From Sinorhizobium terangae (GTDB lineage: Bacteria > Pseudomonadota > Alphaproteobacteria > Rhizobiales > Rhizobiaceae): a DNA stretch of 64,000 nt. The stretch covers positions 1,612,001 through 1,676,000 of the forward strand of contig NZ_CP121660.1 in NCBI RefSeq assembly GCF_029714365.1, given 5' to 3'. Position numbers and translations under genes: made by a program. This document shows, one piece after another, positions 20,798-60,516 of this stretch. The stretch's first letter is position 1; every line of letters begins with the position of its first letter. The notes under the pieces are model-generated. The model saw only the letters and a list, made by a program, of their open reading frames with translations, was not told where the DNA came from and searched no databases.

Positions 20798-21712
20798 ATG
20801 GCAGTCGCGGGGCGAGCCCAATGGAAGGGCTATATCCGGTTTGGCGAAGTGACCGCGCCGGTGGCGCTCTACACCGCCACGTCGACATCCGAGCGGATCT
20901 CCTTCCACACGGTGAACCGAGAAACGGGCAACCGGGTGCGGCGCGAATTCGTCGACAGTGCGACCGGCAAGCCGGTGCAGAAGGAAGATCAGGTCAAAGG
21001 CTACGAGCTCGACAACGACAGGTACGTGGTGCTCGAGCCGGAGGAAGTCGCCGCGGCGGTACCGGAGAGCGACAAAACCTTGCATGTCGAGGCGTTCATT
21101 TCCTGCGAGGACATCGACAAAGTCTATTTCGACCGGCCCTATTACCTGACGCCGGACAAGATGGGCGCGGAGGCATTCGCGCTGCTGCGCGACGGCATGC
21201 ACAAGAAGAAGGTCGCTGCCATCGCCCAGACAGTTCTCTTCCGGCGGATGCGGACCGTGCTGCTCCGCACGCACGAGAAAGGTTTGATCGCCACGACACT
21301 GAACTTCGACTATGAAGTCCGAAGCGCCAAAGAGGCGTTCAAGGAAATCCCGGAAATCAAGATCAAGGGCGAGATGCTCGACCTCGCCAAGCACATCATC
21401 GGCACGAAGAAGGGCACCTTCTCGGCCGACGAGTTCGACGACCGGTATGAGGCCGCGCTTGCCGAACTGGTCAAGGCCAAGATGGAAGGCAAGACCCTGC
21501 CGAAACGCGCTCCTCCGAAAGTTTCGAAACCAAATGAATTGCTGGAAGCCCTGCGCCAGAGCGCCGGTGTCAAGGCTGCGGCCGAACCGAAGAGACGCGC
21601 CGGCAAGGCCGCGGCAAAAGGGAGAGCAAAAGCAACGCGGGCGGCCGCAGCGAAGGCGAAGACAAAGACCGCCGCGAAGAGCGCACCCGCTCAACGTCGC
21701 CGGGCAAGCTAA
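20798..21712 (+). CDS. ku: Ku protein (NHEJ), first of a tandem pair
   Basis: Bacterial Ku of 304 residues that would bind DNA double-strand ends and recruit LigD. The core is typical: WKGYIRFGEVTAPVALYTATSTSERISFHTVNRETGNRVRREFVD, KGYEL, FDRPYYLTPDKMGAEAFALLRDGM, and KGTFSADEFDDRYEAALAELVKAKMEGK. The tail from about residue 250 is Lys/Ala-rich and probably binds DNA. GAGG lies upstream of ATG 20798. A second Ku gene follows after 12 bases. No ligD is adjacent; the nearest is 31 kb away. Sinorhizobium meliloti is known to carry several ku and ligD genes. Confidence 0.95.
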   Translation: MAVAGRAQWKGYIRFGEVTAPVALYTATSTSERISFHTVNRETGNRVRREFVDSATGKPVQKEDQVKGYELDNDRYVVLEPEEVAAAVPESDKTLHVEAFISCEDIDKVYFDRPYYLTPDKMGAEAFALLRDGMHKKKVAAIAQTVLFRRMRTVLLRTHEKGLIATTLNFDYEVRSAKEAFKEIPEIKIKGEMLDLAKHIIGTKKGTFSADEFDDRYEAALAELVKAKMEGKTLPKRAPPKVSKPNELLEALRQSAGVKAAAEPKRRAGKAAAKGRAKATRAAAAKAKTKTAAKSAPAQRRRAS

Positions 21713-21724
21713 GTGAGGTGAACG

Positions 21725-22540
21725 ATGGCACCCCCACGTCCATATTGGAAAGGCTATCTCAAGCTCTCGCTCGTCACCTGCCCTGTTTCGATGATGCCGG
21801 CGACCAGTGAGTCGGAGAAGGTTCGCTTTCACACCCTGAACCGGAAAACGAACAATCGCGTCGTCTCCAGATACGTCGACGCCGAGACCGGCAAGGTAGT
21901 CGATGAAGAAGACGAGGCGAAGGGGTACGAACGCGGCGAAAACGAGTTCCTGGTGATCGAGGACGAGGAACTGGAGAGTGTCGCGCTCGAAAGCGCCCGG
22001 ACCATCGACATCGAAAAGTTCGTGCCGCGCAACACGATCGAATGGGTCTGGCTGGAAAAGCCCCACTACCTGTCGCCGTCGGATGAGGTCGGCCACGAGG
22101 CGTTCAGCGTCATCCGCGACGCGATGGAAGCCGAGAAGGTCGTGGGCATATCCAGACTTGTCATTGGTCGGCGCGAGCGAGCTGTAATGTTGGAGCCATG
22201 CGGCAAAGGTATCGTCGTGTGGACTCTCCGTTATGGCGACGAGGTGAGGAAGCCGGAAAACTATTTTGACGACATCAGCGACGGCGACAATGATCCCAAG
22301 CTGATGAGCCTCGTTACATCGCTGATCGACGAACGGAGCAAACCCTGGAACCCGGACATGGTCCAGGATCCGGTACAGGAAAAACTCAAGGAGATAATCG
22401 AGAGCAAGCGCAAGTCAGCCAAGAAGGGCGCCAAGCCGAAAGGCAAGGATGAAGAGCCTGCCTACACCGGCAACGTGATCGACCTGATGTCGGCTCTGAA
22501 GAAGAGCCTCGAAAAGAAGTCGGGTGGCAAGAGTAAATAG
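21725..22540 (+). CDS. ku: Ku protein (NHEJ), second of a tandem pair
   Basis: Ku paralogue of 271 residues: WKGYLKLSLVTCPVSMMPATSESEKVRFHTLNRKTNNRVVSRYVDAETGKVV, KGYERGENEFLVIEDEELESVALES, LEKPHYLSPSDEVGHEAFSVIRDAM. It is only distantly like its neighbour at 20798 and is closer to the Ku at 55849, which shares the LRLSLVSCPV-type start and a VIDLMSALKKSLE-type ending. The C-terminal Lys-rich tail is short. The 12-base spacing and a GAGGTGA site imply one transcript, and perhaps a heterodimer. Confidence 0.95.
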   Translation: MAPPRPYWKGYLKLSLVTCPVSMMPATSESEKVRFHTLNRKTNNRVVSRYVDAETGKVVDEEDEAKGYERGENEFLVIEDEELESVALESARTIDIEKFVPRNTIEWVWLEKPHYLSPSDEVGHEAFSVIRDAMEAEKVVGISRLVIGRRERAVMLEPCGKGIVVWTLRYGDEVRKPENYFDDISDGDNDPKLMSLVTSLIDERSKPWNPDMVQDPVQEKLKEIIESKRKSAKKGAKPKGKDEEPAYTGNVIDLMSALKKSLEKKSGGKSK

Positions 22541-52684: not shown

Positions 52685-53260
52685 TCAATCCTCGTGCAGC
52701 GCACGGGCAATCGGCGGGCCAACGGTAAGGTCGCGGAACTTTGCCGTAAAGCCTGCGCGTTCCGGGGAGCAGGCCATGACACCGATTTCCGCATCCGCGG
52801 CTGAAAACGGACAAAGCCGCGCCATCTGCCAGGGCGCGTCGCCGAAGCGGAACTGCACCCGCACCGCGTCGCCATGGCGCGTCAGCCGCACCTCGATCGC
52901 GTCGGATGGCGTTGCATCGTGGAGTGGAATGACCGACCAGTCCGAAACGCCGCGCGTGACGACGACGCTGAAATGCATCAGCCCATCGGTATATTCGATA
53001 CCGCACTTGATCCAGTTCTCCTCATCGAGCCGCAGCATCAGACCGGCCTGGTCGTAGAGCTGCTCATAGACGCCCGTGATCGTGGCGGATGCGGTGAAAT
53101 CGTCGGATACCGATCGGAGATAGGCGTGGCCGCTGTCGCGAACGAACCCGTAGAAGGTCTCGCGCCAGAAATCCGTATTGCCGTCCGTCGTGAGCGACAG
53201 CGCCTTTTCGTTGCCTTGCCAGCTTGACGGCTCGTTCAACCAGCGATGGTTTTCTCCCAT
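52685..53260 (-). CDS. DUF1349 family protein
   Basis: A 191-residue beta-sandwich protein of the DUF1349/concanavalin-like lectin type: WRETFYGFVRDSGHAYLRSVSDDFTASATITGVYEQLYDQAGLMLRLDEENWIKCGIEYTDGLMHFSVVVTRGVSDWS, ending MACSPERAGFTAKFRDLTVGP. The family is often linked to sugar-related loci; no enzyme activity is established that I know of. It is convergent with the LacI gene and divergent from ligD. Confidence 0.83.
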   Translation of the reverse strand: MGENHRWLNEPSSWQGNEKALSLTTDGNTDFWRETFYGFVRDSGHAYLRSVSDDFTASATITGVYEQLYDQAGLMLRLDEENWIKCGIEYTDGLMHFSVVVTRGVSDWSVIPLHDATPSDAIEVRLTRHGDAVRVQFRFGDAPWQMARLCPFSAADAEIGVMACSPERAGFTAKFRDLTVGPPIARALHED

Positions 53261-53343
53261 TTTTGCCTTGCCCTCCCTTTATGTTCCGCGTCGACTTCAA
53301 CGTCATATTGCGGGTTCGCCCTGCAAGCCATAGCGTAGGGGAC

Positions 53344-55821
53344 ATGGCGACGTCGAAGCTACAGGTCTATCGCAAGAAAAGGGATTTTTCGAAAACGTCG
53401 GAGCCGCCCGGCAGCCTTGCCGGCGAGAGCGGCAACCGCTTTGTCGTCCATAAACACCATGCGACGGCCGATCACTACGACCTGAGGCTTGAGGTGGGGG
53501 ACGTGCTCAAAAGCTGGGCCGTCCCGAAAGGGCCATCGCTCAATCCGGCCGACAAGCGGCTCGCGGTCGAGACCGAGGATCATCCGCTGGAATACATCGA
53601 CTTCGAGGGTGTCATCCCCGAGGGCGAGTATGGCGGCGGCCCGATGATCGTCTGGGACACGGGCGTCTGGGCGCCGATGGACGACATCGAGAAGAGCTTG
53701 CGCACGGGCGCCTTCAAGTTCCGCCTCGCCGGCGAAAAGCTCAATGGGGGCTGGATGCTGGCGCGGTTGAAAGCCAAGCCCGGCGAGGAAGACCAGCGCA
53801 ACTGGCTCCTGTTCAAGGAACGCGACCTCGCTGCCGATGCCACTGTCGACATTCTCACCGCACGCCCAGAGAGCGTCAAATCCGGACGGCGCATCGAAGA
53901 ACTGGTGGAGAAGCCGAAACCGCCAGCCAAACCTGTCAAGCCGGTCAAGCTCAATCCGGGCGCACTACCGGGCGCCGTCAAAGGTGCGGCACCCGCGCGC
54001 ATCGAACCGCAGCTTGCGACGCCTGCCGACAGGCCTCCGGGTGGCGGCGCAATCGAGAGCGGCGACTGGTTGCATGAGATCAAGTTCGACGGCTACCGGA
54101 CGATGGCGCACATCTCGGACGGTGAGGTGCGTCTTATCACCCGTGGCGGCCTCGACTGGACGAAGCGCTACGGCGATCTTCCGGAAGCCTTCCGCCGGCT
54201 GCCCTGCCGCGAGGCCGTTATCGACGGCGAAATCATCGTCCCTGACGACCAAGGAATCAGTCGCTTTTCCCTGTTGCAGGAGGCACTTTCGAGTGGCGCC
54301 GGTAACAAGCTTGTCTTCTACGCCTTCGATCTTCTCTATCTCGATGGCTGGAGTCTGCTGGCTACTCCGCTTGAAAAGCGCAAGGCGCTGCTCGCGAAAT
54401 TGCTTTCCTCGCATGTATCGGGGCGCTCGGCCATCCAGTTCAGCGATCATGTCCCTGGCGACGGGCGAGCGCTTTACGACCGGGCGTCGGAATTGGGACT
54501 TGAAGGCATTATCTCCAAGCGAGCCTCGGCGCCCTACCAGAGCGGCCGATCGAAAACCTGGACCAAGACCAAGGCGCTCCAGCCGGACGACTTCGTGATT
54601 GCCGGATACACCACCTCGGAGGCGGCCGAGGGTCTCGCCGCGCTGGCACTCGGGGAATGGGTCGAGGGCGAACTGCAATACCGCGGCAAGGTCGGAACCG
54701 GCTTCGATGCGCACACGGCGCAAGAATTGCTCGCGCGGTTGGAGCCGCTTCGCGCCGGTGCGGCAAAACTCGAGGGTGCGCCAAAGGAGATCGTCTGGGT
54801 CCGCCCCGTGCTGTGGGCACATATCCATTATGGCAACCGCACGGCCGACAATGTGCTTCGCCATGCCGTGTTCAAGGGGCTTCGCGAAATCGAACTGTCG
54901 ACGCCCGCCGCGCCGCAGCGAAAGCGGCTGATTTCGGACGCGGACCTCGCCAGCATTTCGATCACAAATCCGATGCGCCGCCTGTTCGGGAAGTCCGGCC
55001 CGACCAAGCTCGACATCGCCGTCTACTATGCGCTCGTCGGCGATTTCATGCTGCCGCATATTCTCAATCGCCCGGTCTCGCTTGTGCGCTGCCCGACGGG
55101 AAGGTCCCAGGATTGCTTCTTCCAACGTCACCCCTTCACCGGCATGCCGTCCTCGGTCGAAACCTTTCAATCAACCAACTCGGAAGGCGAGACGAAATCC
55201 TACCTTTCGGTGGGAGACGCCAAGGGATATCTCGCGCTGGCGCAATTCGGCGTCGTCGAGTTTCACACCTGGGGGACCGTCACCAAGCAGCTTGAAAAGG
55301 CTGACCGCATCGTCTTCGACCTCGACCCGGGCGAAGGCATCACCTGGCGCGAGGTGGTCGAGGCCGCCGTCCATGTGCGCGGCGAGCTGGAGGCGCTTAA
55401 CCTCGTTCCCTTCGTCAAGACATCTGGCGGCAGGGGCGTGCACGTGGTCGTGCCGATCGTGCCGAAACTCAACTGGAAAAAGGTGCATCAGGCAACAAGC
55501 GCGATTGCGACCCGTCTGGCCGCGACCGCGCCCGAGGTGTTCACCACCACGATGGGCAAGGAAAACCGCGTCAAGCGAATCTTCATCGACTTCCATCGCA
55601 ACGCGCGCGGCCACACGGCAGCCGCCCCCTACTCGCTTCGCGCGAGGACAAATCTACCGGCGTCAACCCCGGTAAGCTGGAGCGATCTCGAGTCTATCGA
55701 CGCTCCGGAGGATTTGAACTATTCTTCGCTGCCTGGCCTCCTGGTCACGTCCGGCGATCCATGGGCGGAAATAGCTGCCTTCGCCAGGGATCTGCCGCAG
55801 TTGTCCGAGGCGGGGAAGTAG
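53344..55821 (+). CDS. ligD: ATP-dependent DNA ligase D, three-domain
   Basis: NHEJ ligase of 825 residues in the order phosphoesterase (1-190), ligase (about 220-520), polymerase/primase (about 540-815). The PE domain has VVHKHHATADHYDLRLEV with His38, His44 and Asp46. The ligase nucleophile is Lys247 in EIKFDGYR. The polymerase has the metal pair D659-L-D661 in IVFDLDPGEGITW. ATG 53344 gives the normal N-terminus, though the frame is open to 53224. It starts an operon with ku, a BRCT-TPR gene, a hydrolase and xthA. Confidence 0.94.
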   Translation: MATSKLQVYRKKRDFSKTSEPPGSLAGESGNRFVVHKHHATADHYDLRLEVGDVLKSWAVPKGPSLNPADKRLAVETEDHPLEYIDFEGVIPEGEYGGGPMIVWDTGVWAPMDDIEKSLRTGAFKFRLAGEKLNGGWMLARLKAKPGEEDQRNWLLFKERDLAADATVDILTARPESVKSGRRIEELVEKPKPPAKPVKPVKLNPGALPGAVKGAAPARIEPQLATPADRPPGGGAIESGDWLHEIKFDGYRTMAHISDGEVRLITRGGLDWTKRYGDLPEAFRRLPCREAVIDGEIIVPDDQGISRFSLLQEALSSGAGNKLVFYAFDLLYLDGWSLLATPLEKRKALLAKLLSSHVSGRSAIQFSDHVPGDGRALYDRASELGLEGIISKRASAPYQSGRSKTWTKTKALQPDDFVIAGYTTSEAAEGLAALALGEWVEGELQYRGKVGTGFDAHTAQELLARLEPLRAGAAKLEGAPKEIVWVRPVLWAHIHYGNRTADNVLRHAVFKGLREIELSTPAAPQRKRLISDADLASISITNPMRRLFGKSGPTKLDIAVYYALVGDFMLPHILNRPVSLVRCPTGRSQDCFFQRHPFTGMPSSVETFQSTNSEGETKSYLSVGDAKGYLALAQFGVVEFHTWGTVTKQLEKADRIVFDLDPGEGITWREVVEAAVHVRGELEALNLVPFVKTSGGRGVHVVVPIVPKLNWKKVHQATSAIATRLAATAPEVFTTTMGKENRVKRIFIDFHRNARGHTAAAPYSLRARTNLPASTPVSWSDLESIDAPEDLNYSSLPGLLVTSGDPWAEIAAFARDLPQLSEAGK

Positions 55822-55848
55822 TTTCGTGTTGCCGCGCAGGAGACGATC

Positions 55849-56721
55849 ATGGCGCCCAGGGCAAGTTGGAAAGGTTATCTCAGACTCAGTCTCGTAAGTT
55901 GTCCAGTCAGGCTCTACCCAGCCACCAGTTCAAGTGAACGCATTACCTTCAACCAGCTTCACAAGAAGACTCACAACCGGATCAACATGAAGCCGGTGGA
56001 TCCGGAGCTCGGGCTTGTCGAACGGTCCGATCTGGTGAAGGGCTACGAATACGAAGACAAGAAATACATCATCATCGAGGACACCGATCTCGAAAGCGTC
56101 AAGATCGAATCCAACCACACGATGAACATCGAGGCCTTTGTCGACGAGGGGTCGGTCGACGTCATCTACCAGGATGCACCCTATTATCTCGCGCCCGACG
56201 GCGCGATGGCGGAAGAGACCTTCATCGTACTGCGCGAAGCTTTGCGCAAAACCGGCAAGCTGGCGATCGCCCGCCTCGTGCTCTCCAGTCGCGAACGGGT
56301 GATCACAATCGGTCCGCGCGAGACCGGCATGTTCGTCTGCACGCTCCGCAACCCGAACGAGGTGCGCGGCACGGCCGAATATTTCGGCAATATTCCGGTC
56401 GGAAACCCCGACCCTGAAATGCTGCAGCTGGCCGAAGCGCTCATCGAACAGAAGCTCACGACCTTCGATCCCAAGAATTACGAAGATCGCTATGAGATCG
56501 CTCTGATGCAGATGATCCGCGAGAAGCTCAAGGGCCACAAGCCGATCATCGCGGCAGCACCCGAGCGCGGTAACGTCATCAATCTCATGGATGCCTTGAA
56601 AGCGAGCCTCTCCCAGACGAAACCGCCGGCCAAGAGCAAGCCCAAGGCCGAGCCAGCGGCCAAACGAACTGCGAAGGCGGCAACGACCAGCGGCAAGCCG
56701 GCGGCCAAGAAAAAAGTCTGA
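55849..56721 (+). CDS. ku: Ku protein paired with LigD
   Basis: Ku of 290 residues: WKGYLRLSLVSCPVRLYPATSSSERITFNQLHKKTHNRINMKPVDPELGLVERSDLVKGYEYEDKKYIIIEDTDLESVKIES, YQDAPYYLAPDGAMAEETFIVLREAL, and a C-terminal VINLMDALKASLSQTKPPAKSKPK followed by a Lys/Ala tail. It begins 27 bases after ligD, so these two are the likely working NHEJ pair. Its stop overlaps the start of the next gene by one base (TGATG). Confidence 0.95.
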   Translation: MAPRASWKGYLRLSLVSCPVRLYPATSSSERITFNQLHKKTHNRINMKPVDPELGLVERSDLVKGYEYEDKKYIIIEDTDLESVKIESNHTMNIEAFVDEGSVDVIYQDAPYYLAPDGAMAEETFIVLREALRKTGKLAIARLVLSSRERVITIGPRETGMFVCTLRNPNEVRGTAEYFGNIPVGNPDPEMLQLAEALIEQKLTTFDPKNYEDRYEIALMQMIREKLKGHKPIIAAAPERGNVINLMDALKASLSQTKPPAKSKPKAEPAAKRTAKAATTSGKPAAKKKV

Positions 56722-57806
56722 TGGCGGTTGCAGGGCAGACATTCGGCATCGTCGGCGCCCTTGCCGCGTTTCCTCGCCGATTGGCGGCGCGCGAGGTCGA
56801 ACGGCAGTTCGGCCATCTGCGGCGCGGCATTACGCGCCAGACCTCGCACCTCGTCTTCGGCCGCAGCCTGCTTTCAACGGCGAGCGACGCGGAGATCGAA
56901 GCACGCTTCGACTCGGAAATACGCCAGAACAGACGTCCTCTCAGCGAGAACGGCTTTCTTCGGCTGCTGGGTCTGATGTCGACGCCGGAGGCATCGGCCT
57001 TGACGCGGCAGGCGCTCATCGATCAGTCGCGGCTTGCGGCCCGCACCTTCGACCTTCTTTCGCTGTTCGACGCCTTCGAGCATGACAGCGAACCCTATTC
57101 CTTCCGCGACCTGATCCTGGCCCGGAAATATGCCGGCCTGATCGACAGCGGCGCCACCTGGAGCGCGATCGCACGGTCAGTGCACCGCTCCGGCTCCGTG
57201 GCGGCGCTCACCGCGCTCTCGCTCCATCACGAGGGCGCGGACACGATTTACGCCCGCCGCGCCGAGGGCCTCAGCGAACTCGACGGGCAGTTGCTGTTCG
57301 ATCTTGGAACGTCCAGCGATGCGGAGCTTGAAGACCTCTTCGCTGAGGCGGAAGCCGCAGAGGAGGACGGCTGCTACGACCAAGCGGCGGCATTCTATCA
57401 ACGTTGCCTCGCCATCGACCCGACGGACTCCGTCGCCGCCTTCAACCGCGCAAATTGCCTCAAGGCAGCGGGCCGGCAGGTGGAAGCGGCGCATGATTAC
57501 ATCCGCGCGCTCAAACTGGACTCCAGCTTCGTCGAGGCGTGGTTCAATCTAGCCGGGCTCATGGGCGAACGCGGGCGGATCGACGCTGCGCGCCGGTACC
57601 TCAAAAAAGCCATCGAACTCGACGGCGACTATGCAGACGCTGTCTTCAACCTGGCGAAACTCGAATTCGACGCAGACAATCTCGCAGAGGCGCGCCACTG
57701 GTGGAGGCGCTATCTCGAGCTCGACAAGGATTCGGAGTGGGCACGGGCTGCCGAACGCGGCGTGCAGTTCGTCGACCTCCATCTCCTTCCAAGGAGCGCT
57801 GGCTGA
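56721..57806 (+). CDS. BRCT-like, HTH-like and TPR protein in the NHEJ operon
   Basis: A 361-residue protein. Residues 5-86 look like a BRCT domain: GQTFGIVGALAAFPRRLAAREVERQFGHLRRGITRQTSHLVFGRSLLS, closing with RPLSENGFLRLLG. Residues 127-157 (SFRDLILARKYAGLIDSGATWSAIARSVHRS) resemble a MerR-like HTH. Residues 215-345 hold TPRs (CYDQAAAFYQRCLAIDPTDSVAAFNRANCLKAAGR and two more). It overlaps ku by one base and precedes the hydrolase by one base, so it is coupled to both. BRCT domains bind phosphopeptides or DNA; a scaffold at breaks is inferred, not shown. Confidence 0.75.
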   Translation: MAVAGQTFGIVGALAAFPRRLAAREVERQFGHLRRGITRQTSHLVFGRSLLSTASDAEIEARFDSEIRQNRRPLSENGFLRLLGLMSTPEASALTRQALIDQSRLAARTFDLLSLFDAFEHDSEPYSFRDLILARKYAGLIDSGATWSAIARSVHRSGSVAALTALSLHHEGADTIYARRAEGLSELDGQLLFDLGTSSDAELEDLFAEAEAAEEDGCYDQAAAFYQRCLAIDPTDSVAAFNRANCLKAAGRQVEAAHDYIRALKLDSSFVEAWFNLAGLMGERGRIDAARRYLKKAIELDGDYADAVFNLAKLEFDADNLAEARHWWRRYLELDKDSEWARAAERGVQFVDLHLLPRSAG

Positions 57807-57807
57807 G

Positions 57808-58449
57808 ATGGGCGAAAAATTCCTGTTCGACGGACCGGAGGACGCCGCCGTCACCATCCTGCTGGCGCACGGCGCAGGCGCACCGATGGACTCGGCCTCG
57901 ATGAGCGCGACCGCCAAAGCTCTTGCCGAGGCCGGCTTTCGCGTCGCCCGTTTTGAGTTCGGTTACATGGCGGCGCGTCGGACTTCGGAAGGCCGCAAGC
58001 CGCCACCCAGGGCAGAGACGCTGAAGCCGGAATACGAGGCCGCCGTCGCGGCGCTCGGCGCGACCGGCCCGCTCGTCATCGGCGGCAAGTCGATGGGAGG
58101 GCGGGTCGCCAGCATGATTGCCGACGGCCTTCACTCGGGCGGTAAAATCGCCGGGCTGCTCTGTCTCGGCTATCCGTTTCATCCGCCGGCCAAACCGGAG
58201 CAGCTTCGCACGAAGCATCTCGCAGACTTGAAAACGCCGACATTGATCTGCCAGGGAACACGCGACGAGTTCGGCACCCGCGACGACGTCGCCGGCTACG
58301 CCCTCTCCGATGCGATCGAAATCCTGTGGCTCGAGGACGGCGACCACGACCTCAAACCGCGCAAGAGCGTGTCGGGCTTTTCGGCTGCCGATCATCTGAA
58401 GACGGTGGCCGAAACCGTTCGCGCCTGGACTGGCCGGCTGGTGCGCTGA
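57808..58449 (+). CDS. Alpha/beta hydrolase (dienelactone hydrolase-like)
   Basis: A 213-residue alpha/beta hydrolase with LLAHGAGAPMDSASMSATAKALAEAGFRVARFEFGYMAARR, nucleophile Ser in VIGGKSMGGRVASMIA, Asp in LICQGTRDEFG and His in LEDGDHDLKPRK. This is the KANL3/Tex30-like small hydrolase group, whose substrate is unknown. ATG 57808 follows AAGGAGC and starts one base after the BRCT-TPR stop, which argues for coupled translation. Its presence in a repair operon is unexplained. Confidence 0.83.
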   Translation: MGEKFLFDGPEDAAVTILLAHGAGAPMDSASMSATAKALAEAGFRVARFEFGYMAARRTSEGRKPPPRAETLKPEYEAAVAALGATGPLVIGGKSMGGRVASMIADGLHSGGKIAGLLCLGYPFHPPAKPEQLRTKHLADLKTPTLICQGTRDEFGTRDDVAGYALSDAIEILWLEDGDHDLKPRKSVSGFSAADHLKTVAETVRAWTGRLVR

Positions 58450-58453
58450 GCAC

Positions 58454-59227
58454 ATGAAGATCGCGACCTTCAACATCAATGGCGTCAACCGGCGGCTTGA
58501 GAACCTGCTCGCCTGGCTCACCACGGCCGAACCCGATGTCGTCTGCCTGCAGGAACTCAAGGCCACGGACGGCCAATTCCCCAAGGCAGCAATCGAGGCG
58601 GCCGGCTATGGTGCGGTGTGGCGCGGACAGGCCGCCTGGAACGGCGTCGCGATCCTCGCGCGCGATTGCGAGCCGATCCTGACCCGGGCGGAGTTGCCCG
58701 GTGACCCGTCCGATACGCAGAGCCGATACATCGAAGCGGCCGTGAACGGCATTCTCATCACCTCGCTCTACGCCCCCAACGGCAATCCGCAGCCCGGACC
58801 GAAATTCGACTACAAACTGGCCTGGCATGAACGCCTGAGGCTGCATGCTGCCGAACTGCTGGCGACCGGTCTGCCGGTGGTGCTTGCTGGCGACTACAAC
58901 GTGGTGCCCGAGCCGCGCGACATCTACCCGACCCGCTCCTACGACGAGAACGCGCTCGTACAACCCGAAAGCCGCGCCGCCTTCCGGCACCTACTCGACC
59001 AGGGCTGGCTCGACGCGCTCCGCAATATTTATCCGGAAGAACGGCTTTTCACGTTCTGGGACTACCGCCGCAACCGCTGGCAGCGCGACGCGGGCCTGCG
59101 TCTCGACCACGTTCTCTTGAGCCGGAAGCTCACACGCCGGCTCGCAGGTGCCGGCATCGACCGGGACGTGCGCGGCGTCGACGGCGCGAGCGACCACGCA
59201 CCGGTGTGGATTACGTTGCGAGATTAA
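58454..59227 (+). CDS. xthA: Exodeoxyribonuclease III / AP endonuclease
   Basis: A 257-residue member of the ExoIII family: MKIATFNINGVNRRLENLLAWLTTAEPDVVCLQELKATDGQFPKAAIEAAGYG, SRYIEAAVNGILITSLYAPNGNP, VVLAGDYNVVPEPRDIY, RLDHVLLSRKL and GASDHAPVWI. All catalytic motifs (Asn7, Glu in QELK, GDYN, SDHAP) are kept. It cuts at abasic sites and removes 3' blocks, work that can prepare ends for LigD. It starts 4 bases after the hydrolase and ends the operon. Confidence 0.9.
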   Translation: MKIATFNINGVNRRLENLLAWLTTAEPDVVCLQELKATDGQFPKAAIEAAGYGAVWRGQAAWNGVAILARDCEPILTRAELPGDPSDTQSRYIEAAVNGILITSLYAPNGNPQPGPKFDYKLAWHERLRLHAAELLATGLPVVLAGDYNVVPEPRDIYPTRSYDENALVQPESRAAFRHLLDQGWLDALRNIYPEERLFTFWDYRRNRWQRDAGLRLDHVLLSRKLTRRLAGAGIDRDVRGVDGASDHAPVWITLRD

Positions 59228-59310
59228 TAGACCTCCTCCCCGTCCGAGGTCCACAAGGGGGGAGAAGGTGGCGGTAGCGGGATGCGGACCTTGCGCCCAT
59301 CTCCCGAAGG

Positions 59311-60516
59311 CTAAAACCCGACGCGCCGCCGCGAGGCCATGACATAGAGCGCGCTTGAAAGTGTCGCGACAGCGCAATAGGTGATGGCGCCGAGCGGACC
59401 GAAGCCGTCCACGAAGAGACCGCCCAGGATGGCACCGCTGGCGATCCCGACCTGGAACGTGGCGACGATCAAGCCGCCGGTGCTTTCCGCATGGTCTGGC
59501 GCTGCGCGCACCATCCAGGTCTGCACGGCGACGGGCAACGCGCCGAAGGCGAAGCCCCAGAGGGTTACCGCAACGGCAGAAATCAGATCAATCGAACCGA
59601 GAGTCACAAGAGTCAGTGCCATCGCCGCGATGAGCAGGGTGCCAAGGGTCACAGCCGCGGTAATGCTCCGTTCGATAATGAAGCCGCCGGCGAGGTTGCC
59701 GAAAAAGCCGCCGATGCCGTAAGCAAGCAGGATCATCGATATCGCCTCGATGCCGAAGACAGGCACCCTCTCCAAGAAAGGACGAACGTAGGTGAAGCCA
59801 GCGAAGTGACCCGATACGAAGAGCATAACCGTGATGATACCGATGCGGATGCTCGGCTTGCGCATGAGGTCGAACAGAAGCCTGAGGCTCGGCACGGATT
59901 GCGGTGGCAGGCGCGGTATGCTCGCCATCTGGACGAGGAGCGTCACGAGACCGACCGCTGCGGCCATCAGGAAGGCGGCACGCCAGCCCCAGAGATCACC
60001 GATATAGGCACCGACGGGCGCTGCACAGACGGTCGCGACGGAGACGCCGGTGAAGACGATCGACATGGCGCGCGGCACGAGAGCCATCGGCACGAGACGC
60101 AGCGCGATCGCCGCCATCATCGACCAGAAGCCGCCGAGCCCGATGCCGAGGACGATCCGGGCGGCAAGGAGCATGGCGAGATTGGTGGCGAAGGCCGCGA
60201 TCAGGCTGGAGGCGATCAGGGCCAGGGTGAATCCCCAAAGCACCAGCCGGCGATCGAGGCGGCGCGTGATAATCGCTATCGTCAAGCCCGCGACCGCGCC
60301 GACGACGGCGGTCGCGGTGACCGCCTGGCCCGCTGTACCTGTGCTGATGCCGAGATCGGCCGCCATCGGCGTTAGGATGCTGACCGGAAGGAACTCTGCG
60401 GTGACGAGGCCGAACACGCCGAGTGCAAGCGAGGCCACGCCAGCCCAGGCCGGATCGCTTCGTTCGTCGTTTTCCGGCATCAGTCCGGCATCCAGTGTTG
60501 TCGCTGTTTCTGTCAT
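59311..60516 (-). CDS. MFS transporter (DHA1/AraJ-like)
   Basis: A 401-residue permease with 12 helices. ASLALGVFGLVTAEFLPVSILTPMAADLGISTGTAGQAVTATAVVGAVAGLTIAIITRRLDRRLVLWG is the DHA1 front, similar to sugar efflux and AraJ-like proteins, and GDLWGWRAAFLMAAAVG is motif C. It probably exports a drug or sugar. It is divergent from an AraC gene over 73 bases; GGAG is before its ATG. Confidence 0.87.
   Translation of the reverse strand: MTETATTLDAGLMPENDERSDPAWAGVASLALGVFGLVTAEFLPVSILTPMAADLGISTGTAGQAVTATAVVGAVAGLTIAIITRRLDRRLVLWGFTLALIASSLIAAFATNLAMLLAARIVLGIGLGGFWSMMAAIALRLVPMALVPRAMSIVFTGVSVATVCAAPVGAYIGDLWGWRAAFLMAAAVGLVTLLVQMASIPRLPPQSVPSLRLLFDLMRKPSIRIGIITVMLFVSGHFAGFTYVRPFLERVPVFGIEAISMILLAYGIGGFFGNLAGGFIIERSITAAVTLGTLLIAAMALTLVTLGSIDLISAVAVTLWGFAFGALPVAVQTWMVRAAPDHAESTGGLIVATFQVGIASGAILGGLFVDGFGPLGAITYCAVATLSSALYVMASRRRVGF

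What the first reader, a model, noticed from the sequence alone, without database searches (positions are those of the whole stretch)
53344..59227. Expanded NHEJ operon with an uncharacterised BRCT-HTH-TPR protein
ligD, ku, a BRCT-like/HTH-like/TPR protein, an alpha/beta hydrolase and exonuclease III are packed with gaps of 27, -1, 1 and 4 bases. LigD, Ku and ExoIII have established repair roles. The other two are in between and translationally coupled, which suggests a link to end-joining. A BRCT domain coupled to a Ku gene recalls eukaryotic XRCC4/ligase IV scaffolds.
Basis: partly seen in the sequence, partly recalled or inferred. Interest (0 to 1): 0.85.

Follow-up and report, generated by a model that had tools for sequence, protein, structure and literature searches.

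The report
BRCT-HTH-TPR partner of bacterial Ku
Many alphaproteobacteria carry, right behind one kind of DNA-break-repair gene (ku), a gene labelled only "TPR protein" that really combines a BRCT domain, a probable MerR-like DNA-binding domain and a TPR scaffold, and may be a dedicated third part of their break-joining machinery.

Summary
In detail: ligD, ku, a 361-aa gene, an alpha/beta hydrolase and exonuclease III lie at the stated coordinates with gaps of 27, -1, 1 and 4 nt. The middle protein has an N-terminal BRCT domain (profile-profile 99.0%, E 8.5e-18), a probable MerR-like winged HTH (50%, E 1.6e-4; 20 shuffles E>=0.07) and a TPR superhelix. On plasmids the link runs both ways: 86 records carry this Ku type and 86 carry the gene. 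Other Ku lineages, including three more ku genes in the same genome, lack it. The hydrolase and ExoIII are looser partners. The XRCC4 analogy is poor: the BRCT resembles LigA/RFC1, and the fitting analogy is the Ku-docking single BRCT of Pol lambda/mu. Most likely it is a Ku-type-specific NHEJ accessory scaffold; function is inferred. Deposited annotation, where shown, reads "tetratricopeptide repeat protein"; six literature searches listed no description of it, but two key papers were not held.

The parts
53305..53334 (+). Promoter-like element ATATTGC-N17-CATAGC, ending 9 nt before the ligD ATG
   Evidence: Read from sequence; a TTG...CATA pattern chosen after looking is present upstream of ligD in 19 of 27 named loci tested. 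Not tested experimentally; the generic sigma-70 scan did not list it.
53344..55821 (+). ligD, 825 aa, PE-LIG-POL three-domain DNA ligase D
   Evidence: Pfam PF13298/PF01068/PF04679/PF21686; TIGR02776 715.8 bits
55849..56721 (+). ku, 290 aa, lysine/alanine-rich C-terminal tail; the Ku lineage that carries the BRCT partner
   Evidence: PF02735 5.4e-44; TIGR02772 1.1e-82; Ku tree
56721..57806 (+). BRCT-HTH-TPR gene, 361 aa, ATG overlaps the ku stop by 1 nt (TGATG)
   Evidence: single copy in the genome; conserved beside ku
56727..56978 (+). BRCT domain, residues about 3-86 (strand-helix-strand-strand-helix-strand-helix)
   Evidence: hhalign to LigA BRCT 99.0%, E 8.5e-18, 10 column shuffles E>=0.034; RFC1 BRCT 5.7e-6; Foldseek top hit RFC1 BRCT; predicted secondary structure
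57000..57188 (+). Probable MerR-like winged helix-turn-helix, residues about 94-156
57312..57797 (+). TPR superhelix, residues about 198-359; Asn at 242, 276, 310 (spacing 34) nearly invariant
57808..58449 (+). alpha/beta hydrolase (Abhydrolase_11), 213 aa
   Evidence: PF20408 5.5e-72
58454..59227 (+). exodeoxyribonuclease III (Xth), 257 aa
   Evidence: PF03372 4e-31, TIGR00633 1.2e-68

Best explanation
The 361-aa protein is a dedicated accessory subunit of one lineage of alphaproteobacterial Ku. Shown here: its domain make-up (BRCT firmly, MerR-like wHTH with moderate support, TPR firmly), its place directly behind ku of this lineage in every case examined, purifying selection, and absence beside the other-lineage Ku genes examined. 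Inferred: it is made together with Ku by translational coupling; the BRCT docks on Ku and/or the DNA end (as the Pol lambda/mu BRCT docks on Ku70/80, or the RFC1/LigA BRCT assists DNA engagement); the winged HTH grips the duplex next to Ku; and the TPR groove, lined by an Asn ladder, holds an extended peptide of a partner (candidates: the Ku C-terminal tail, or a LigD linker), so that two ends plus LigD (and in Rhizobiaceae ExoIII) are held together for processing and ligation.
For: Adjacency to ku: 36 of 36 family hits, 4 of 4 further family genomes, 11 of 11 in other families of the order and 8 of 8 in other families of the class: 59 of 59; 80 of 80 named loci, 63 of them overlapping ku by 1 or 4 nt. 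Two-way link on plasmids: 86 records with this Ku type and 86 with the gene, with the same organism and mobility tallies; the other 414 Ku-bearing records are under 60% identical. Absent beside 23 other Ku genes (20 in 19 fetched loci, 3 in two loci of the own genome) even with the sensitive profile. BRCT. HTH. TPR. dN/dS of the gene 0.08-0.15. Precedent for a single BRCT binding Ku: PMC12056208 (abstract and passages).
Confidence: 0.5

Rival explanations
1. A transcription regulator of the NHEJ operon: a MerR-type HTH binds the ligD promoter, the TPR or BRCT part senses a damage signal.
For: MerR-like wHTH; a conserved promoter-like element upstream of ligD in 19 of 27 loci, a place where MerR proteins could act (recalled).
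Against: It lies inside the operon, overlapping ku; BRCT domains belong mainly to repair and replication proteins (recalled). The protein is kept when the order changes to ku-BRCT-ligD (L129-L131, L139, L140), so it does not track one ligD promoter. No operator was tested.
Confidence: 0.2
2. An end-processing adaptor: it brings ExoIII (and perhaps the hydrolase) rather than LigD to Ku-bound ends.
For: By listed coordinates ExoIII adjoins the hydrolase in 12 of 13 BRCT-positive genomes but in 1 of 19 BRCT-negative genomes that have the hydrolase (the ExoIII list is cut at its weak end).
Against: The deepest members (L128-L131, L135-L142, also L123) have no hydrolase or ExoIII match in the fetched flanks of about 1.5 kb (tblastn with the window proteins), so this is unlikely to be the ancestral role.
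Confidence: 0.12
3. A Ku chaperone or assembly/stability factor that folds or loads Ku, with no role at the break.
For: Overlapping genes, lineage-specific pairing with Ku, a TPR groove.
Against: BRCT plus HTH are DNA-repair and DNA-binding modules; nothing about folding demands them.
Confidence: 0.1
4. A passenger kept by operon structure or joint transfer of the cassette, with an unrelated function.
For: The cassette is patchy (36 of 297 family genomes) and lies on chromosomes and megaplasmids.
Against: It stays next to ku in every family examined while hydrolase and ExoIII come and go; dN/dS about 0.1.
Confidence: 0.08

Closest known systems
Two-component bacterial NHEJ (Ku + LigD)
   Same: Ku and three-domain LigD in one operon
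   Different: A third gene follows this Ku lineage. The word BRCT occurs 0 times in the main text of five papers on bacterial NHEJ or Ku that I searched by term (PMC7719229, PMC1378119, PMC11936186, PMC10932983, PMC5124664)
Single BRCT of NAD+-dependent ligase LigA and of RFC1
   Same: Closest BRCT by profile and fold
   Different: N-terminal, no enzyme attached; the Thr of the 'TG' motif is lost in 28 of 29
N-terminal BRCT of Pol lambda / Pol mu / TdT
   Same: Single N-terminal BRCT working with Ku in NHEJ; Pol mu BRCT in NHEJ complexes is among the top Foldseek hits (9cq3)
   Different: No polymerase; Ku binding not shown here; low sequence identity (14% for 9cq3_m)
MerR-family regulators (TnrA, GlnR; family recalled)
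   Different: HTH sits between a BRCT and TPRs, not at the N terminus
O-GlcNAc transferase TPR superhelix
   Different: Four to five repeats, no transferase; the Asn is also in designed consensus TPRs

Membership tests
BRCT domain superfamily | Sequence profile similarity to known BRCT domains | tested here: met
   hhalign 99.0%, E 8.5e-18 over 77 columns against 0.034-0.48 for 10 column shuffles; of 6 non-orthologous hits of family profile A2, 5 are LigA frames with a Pfam BRCT and 1 (L143) is an RNase_T exonuclease whose BRCT-like tail Pfam does not confirm at 0.001; PDB RFC1/LigA at 5.7e-6 to 3.3e-5
BRCT domain superfamily | Fold: beta1-alpha1-beta2-beta3-alpha2-beta4-alpha3 | tested here: met
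5'-phosphate-binding BRCT (RFC1/LigA type) | Thr of the 'TG' motif that contacts phosphate (role recalled) | tested here: not met
   Position 11 is V/I/L in 27 of 29, T in 1 of 29; the Gly is 29 of 29
MerR-type winged HTH | Sequence profile similarity to MerR domains | tested here: met
   hhalign to seven MerR domains of the own genome 50.0%, E 1.6e-4, 62 columns end to end; 20 column shuffles 0.07-0.79; BRCT and TPR parts 0.75 and 0.29. Pfam MerR_1 in only 2 of 29 members, best 0.0038
MerR-type winged HTH | Fold similarity to MerR-family DNA-binding domains | tested here: inconclusive
TPR superhelix | Tandem 34-residue TPR motifs | tested here: met
   Pfam TPR models in 29 of 29 members; 34-residue register
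Pol X-type Ku-binding BRCT | BRCT helix alpha1 docks on Ku | not testable with these tools
   No complex prediction offered; alpha1 is basic (R20 in 25 of 29, R24 R/K in 18 of 29), which is compatible but not a test
XRCC4/XLF-like scaffold | Head domain plus long coiled-coil dimerisation stalk (recalled) | tested here: not met
   The predicted structure is BRCT + HTH + TPR without such a stalk
Bacterial NHEJ operon | ku and ligD together, in one direction | tested here: met

The most novel reading that the evidence does not exclude
Bacterial NHEJ is not always two-component: one ancient alphaproteobacterial Ku lineage works with an obligate third subunit whose single N-terminal BRCT docks on Ku much as Pol lambda/mu do on Ku70/80, while its HTH and TPR parts hold DNA and LigD; the tandem ku3/ku4-type lineages nested among these Ku proteins lost it.
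Probability: 0.4. Interest if true: 0.87.

Novelty: new variant of a known kind. Interest (0 to 1): 0.72.

Why it matters
Bacterial end joining is taught as Ku plus LigD. A gene that in every case examined sits behind one Ku lineage, in eleven alphaproteobacterial families, and that on plasmids is as frequent as that Ku itself, stands in databases as 'tetratricopeptide repeat protein'. In Sinorhizobium meliloti 1021 the orthologous locus lies on pSymB and is probably sku2 (assignment recalled), the Ku reported as most relevant for break repair (PMC10932983, passage). If it is a scaffold, bacteria have their own BRCT-based synapsis factor; if a regulator, it explains how this locus is controlled. 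Either is directly testable by one in-frame deletion, since end-joining assays in S. meliloti exist (passages).

Tried and rejected
Direct Pfam scan of the window protein for BRCT: no hit at E<=1; a Pfam BRCT search of the whole own genome found one place, in a 727-aa frame elsewhere, and not this gene even at E<=10.

PADLOC: one weak hit of the TPR part to a PrimPol model (E 2.2e-4), judged a TPR cross-match.

Full-model fold comparison: the list is filled by TPRs, so the N-terminal part was predicted alone. Its BRCT part has low pLDDT; the full model is better there.

RpoE2/EcfG general-stress promoter (motif recalled) upstream of ligD: 0 of 28 regions. Generic promoter and terminator scan: at chance level, no + strand terminator-like site listed in 53000-59400.

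Distant copies beside other Ku genes: profile A6 over 101 family genomes gave 13 full-length members; its other hits cover 53-85 positions of the BRCT part, mostly in frames of about 690-900 aa as LigA has (the own-genome one is the place), with a few shorter or longer frames that I did not assign. None beside the 23 other-lineage ku genes examined.

Viral contigs: 18 stretches matched a pattern, 0 relatives. Plasmids with divergent queries: the same Rhizobiaceae genera plus 3 Enterococcus records, of which the one listed matches over 46 residues of the BRCT part.

So 'alphaproteobacterial' is a statement about what was searched. The phylum sample (299 genomes) gave no member outside the family f1, only two LigA cross-hits.

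RFC1 residue roles and the sku2 locus assignment could not be checked in the library (one search found nothing; papers not held).

Mended: promoter count (19, not 20, of 27), identity range, L143, the Rv1828 row.

Full report
OBSERVATION. LigD has PE, LIG and POL domains, Ku is a clear bacterial Ku, the last two genes are an Abhydrolase_11 protein and Xth. The window lies on a 2.1-Mb contig of a genome with four ku genes; the closest named genome found is Sinorhizobium terangae USDA4894 (100% over 200 aa). The N-terminal 200 residues have one match in the genome.

BRCT. The window protein alone gives no BRCT hit in Pfam. I collected relatives by whole-genome searches and aligned 29 diverse ones (A3; N-terminal parts A6). 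Profile-profile comparison of the N-terminal columns with six LigA BRCT domains gives 99.0%, E 8.5e-18 over 77 columns; ten column shuffles give E 0.034 or worse and the middle part 0.23. Of six non-orthologous hits of the narrower profile A2, five are LigA with a Pfam BRCT and one is an RNase_T exonuclease with a BRCT-like tail that Pfam does not confirm. The diverse profile A6 hits in 100 of 101 family genomes at E<=0.01, mostly in frames of LigA size and over the BRCT positions only. Against the PDB the best hits are RFC1 BRCT (5.7e-6) and DNA ligase A (5.9e-6). At E<=10 Pfam BRCT is met by 8 of 29 full proteins (best 0.0014) and 11 of 29 N-terminal parts (best 0.00055). The predicted secondary structure has the BRCT order, and Foldseek's top hit is RFC1 BRCT, with the Pol mu BRCT of NHEJ complexes at ranks 3, 5 and 6; no Foldseek E-value is under 0.001.

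NEIGHBOURHOOD. In a sample of 297 genomes of the family, 36 have the gene and 191 have ku. All 36 have ku directly upstream: 30 by loci, 5 by coordinates, 1 by a fetched stretch (L157). Four further family genomes (L115, L117, L118, L120), 11 of 11 in four other families of the order (L121-L131) and 8 of 8 in six other families of the class (L135-L142) do too: 59 of 59 in eleven families. Before counting I dropped six rows that are not orthologues (L132-L134, L143-L145). The deepest members are 20-32% identical to the window over the N-terminal part. Among the best 80 named loci, of 181 found, 80 of 80 have ku upstream; 34 overlap it by 4 nt, 29 by 1 nt, 17 have gaps of 5-25 nt. LigD lies upstream in 74 of 80, five of the other six being near a contig end and one (L084) not; the hydrolase is downstream in 76 and ExoIII in 75, the misses being on loci that end early. 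In L129-L131, L139 and L140 the order is ku-BRCT-ligD.

TWO-WAY LINK. On plasmids, 86 records have the gene and 86 have a Ku matching at E<=1e-100, with identical tallies by organism and mobility; the other 414 Ku-bearing records are under 60% identical. I compared tallies and rows listed in both (60 of 86 each), not all 86 one by one. In a Ku tree of 62 proteins (39 paired, 23 other) paired Ku proteins cluster (3 changes against 19.0 in shuffles); the tandem ku3/ku4-type proteins fall among the paired ones with starred support, so one gain and two losses is a simple reading, though three gains need as many changes, the root is only a midpoint, and L139 and L140 are long branches.

LOOSER PARTNERS. 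In 101 family genomes the hydrolase is in 32, the 13 BRCT-positive ones among them; ExoIII-like genes are in 101 of 101. By listed coordinates ExoIII adjoins the hydrolase in 12 of 13 BRCT-positive (not G067) and in 1 of 19 BRCT-negative hydrolase genomes (G024). So the pair belongs to the cassette in Rhizobiaceae and near families but is not its core.

MECHANISM. Shown: domain make-up, placement, lineage-specific pairing, selection (dN/dS of the gene 0.08-0.15). Inferred: co-translation with Ku, docking on Ku or DNA, TPR-held partner. The best precedent for the BRCT is Pol lambda and Pol mu, whose BRCT docks at the Ku70/Ku80 bridge, in Pol lambda by helix alpha1 (PMC12056208, abstract and passages). 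The Thr that RFC1/LigA-type BRCTs use on phosphate (recalled) is missing here in 28 of 29, which speaks for protein docking rather than 5'-phosphate binding. LigA's own BRCT role is still open (PMC5052709, passages).

KNOWN? Six searches, judged by their listings, gave no paper on a BRCT/TPR protein of bacterial NHEJ, and a term search finds 'BRCT' 0 times in the main text of PMC7719229, PMC1378119, PMC11936186, PMC10932983 and PMC5124664. In the passages seen, PMC9226535 uses BRCT for eukaryotic Pol X. The two key S. meliloti NHEJ papers are not held, so prior mention there is possible. A deposited S. meliloti record annotates the operon as ligD, Ku protein, tetratricopeptide repeat protein, alpha/beta hydrolase, xth.

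VERDICT. A real, old, Ku-lineage-specific accessory gene whose domain make-up was hidden behind its TPR label.

Noticed in passing
window 20804-21589 and 21734-22537: Two further tandem ku genes (38-39% identical to the finding's Ku), probably the sku3/sku4 type (name recalled); neither has a BRCT partner, although the Ku tree places their lineages among the paired Ku proteins.
   Followed up: partly
window 53305-53334: Conserved ATATTGC-N17-CATAGC-like element 8-9 nt before the ligD ATG in 19 of 27 named loci by a pattern chosen after looking; suggests a very short or absent 5' leader on the operon mRNA.
   Followed up: partly
L041:7001-8725: In Ensifer sp. IC4062 the BRCT gene reads as a 575-aa frame that runs on past its usual stop into the hydrolase region: a frame change near its 3' end, real or an assembly error.
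   Followed up: no
L018, L060: In Mesorhizobium sp. L-8-3 (L060, and L018 from a contig of the same length) about 0.8 kb lies between the BRCT gene and the hydrolase.
   Followed up: no
L143: An RNase_T exonuclease frame with a BRCT-like tail in another alphaproteobacterial family, found as a cross-hit; Pfam does not confirm the tail at E<=0.001.
   Followed up: partly
G017:C8:122551-123318: In a BRCT-negative family genome an ExoIII-like gene lies right beside ku on the opposite strand, so ExoIII and ku may have come together more than once.
   Followed up: no
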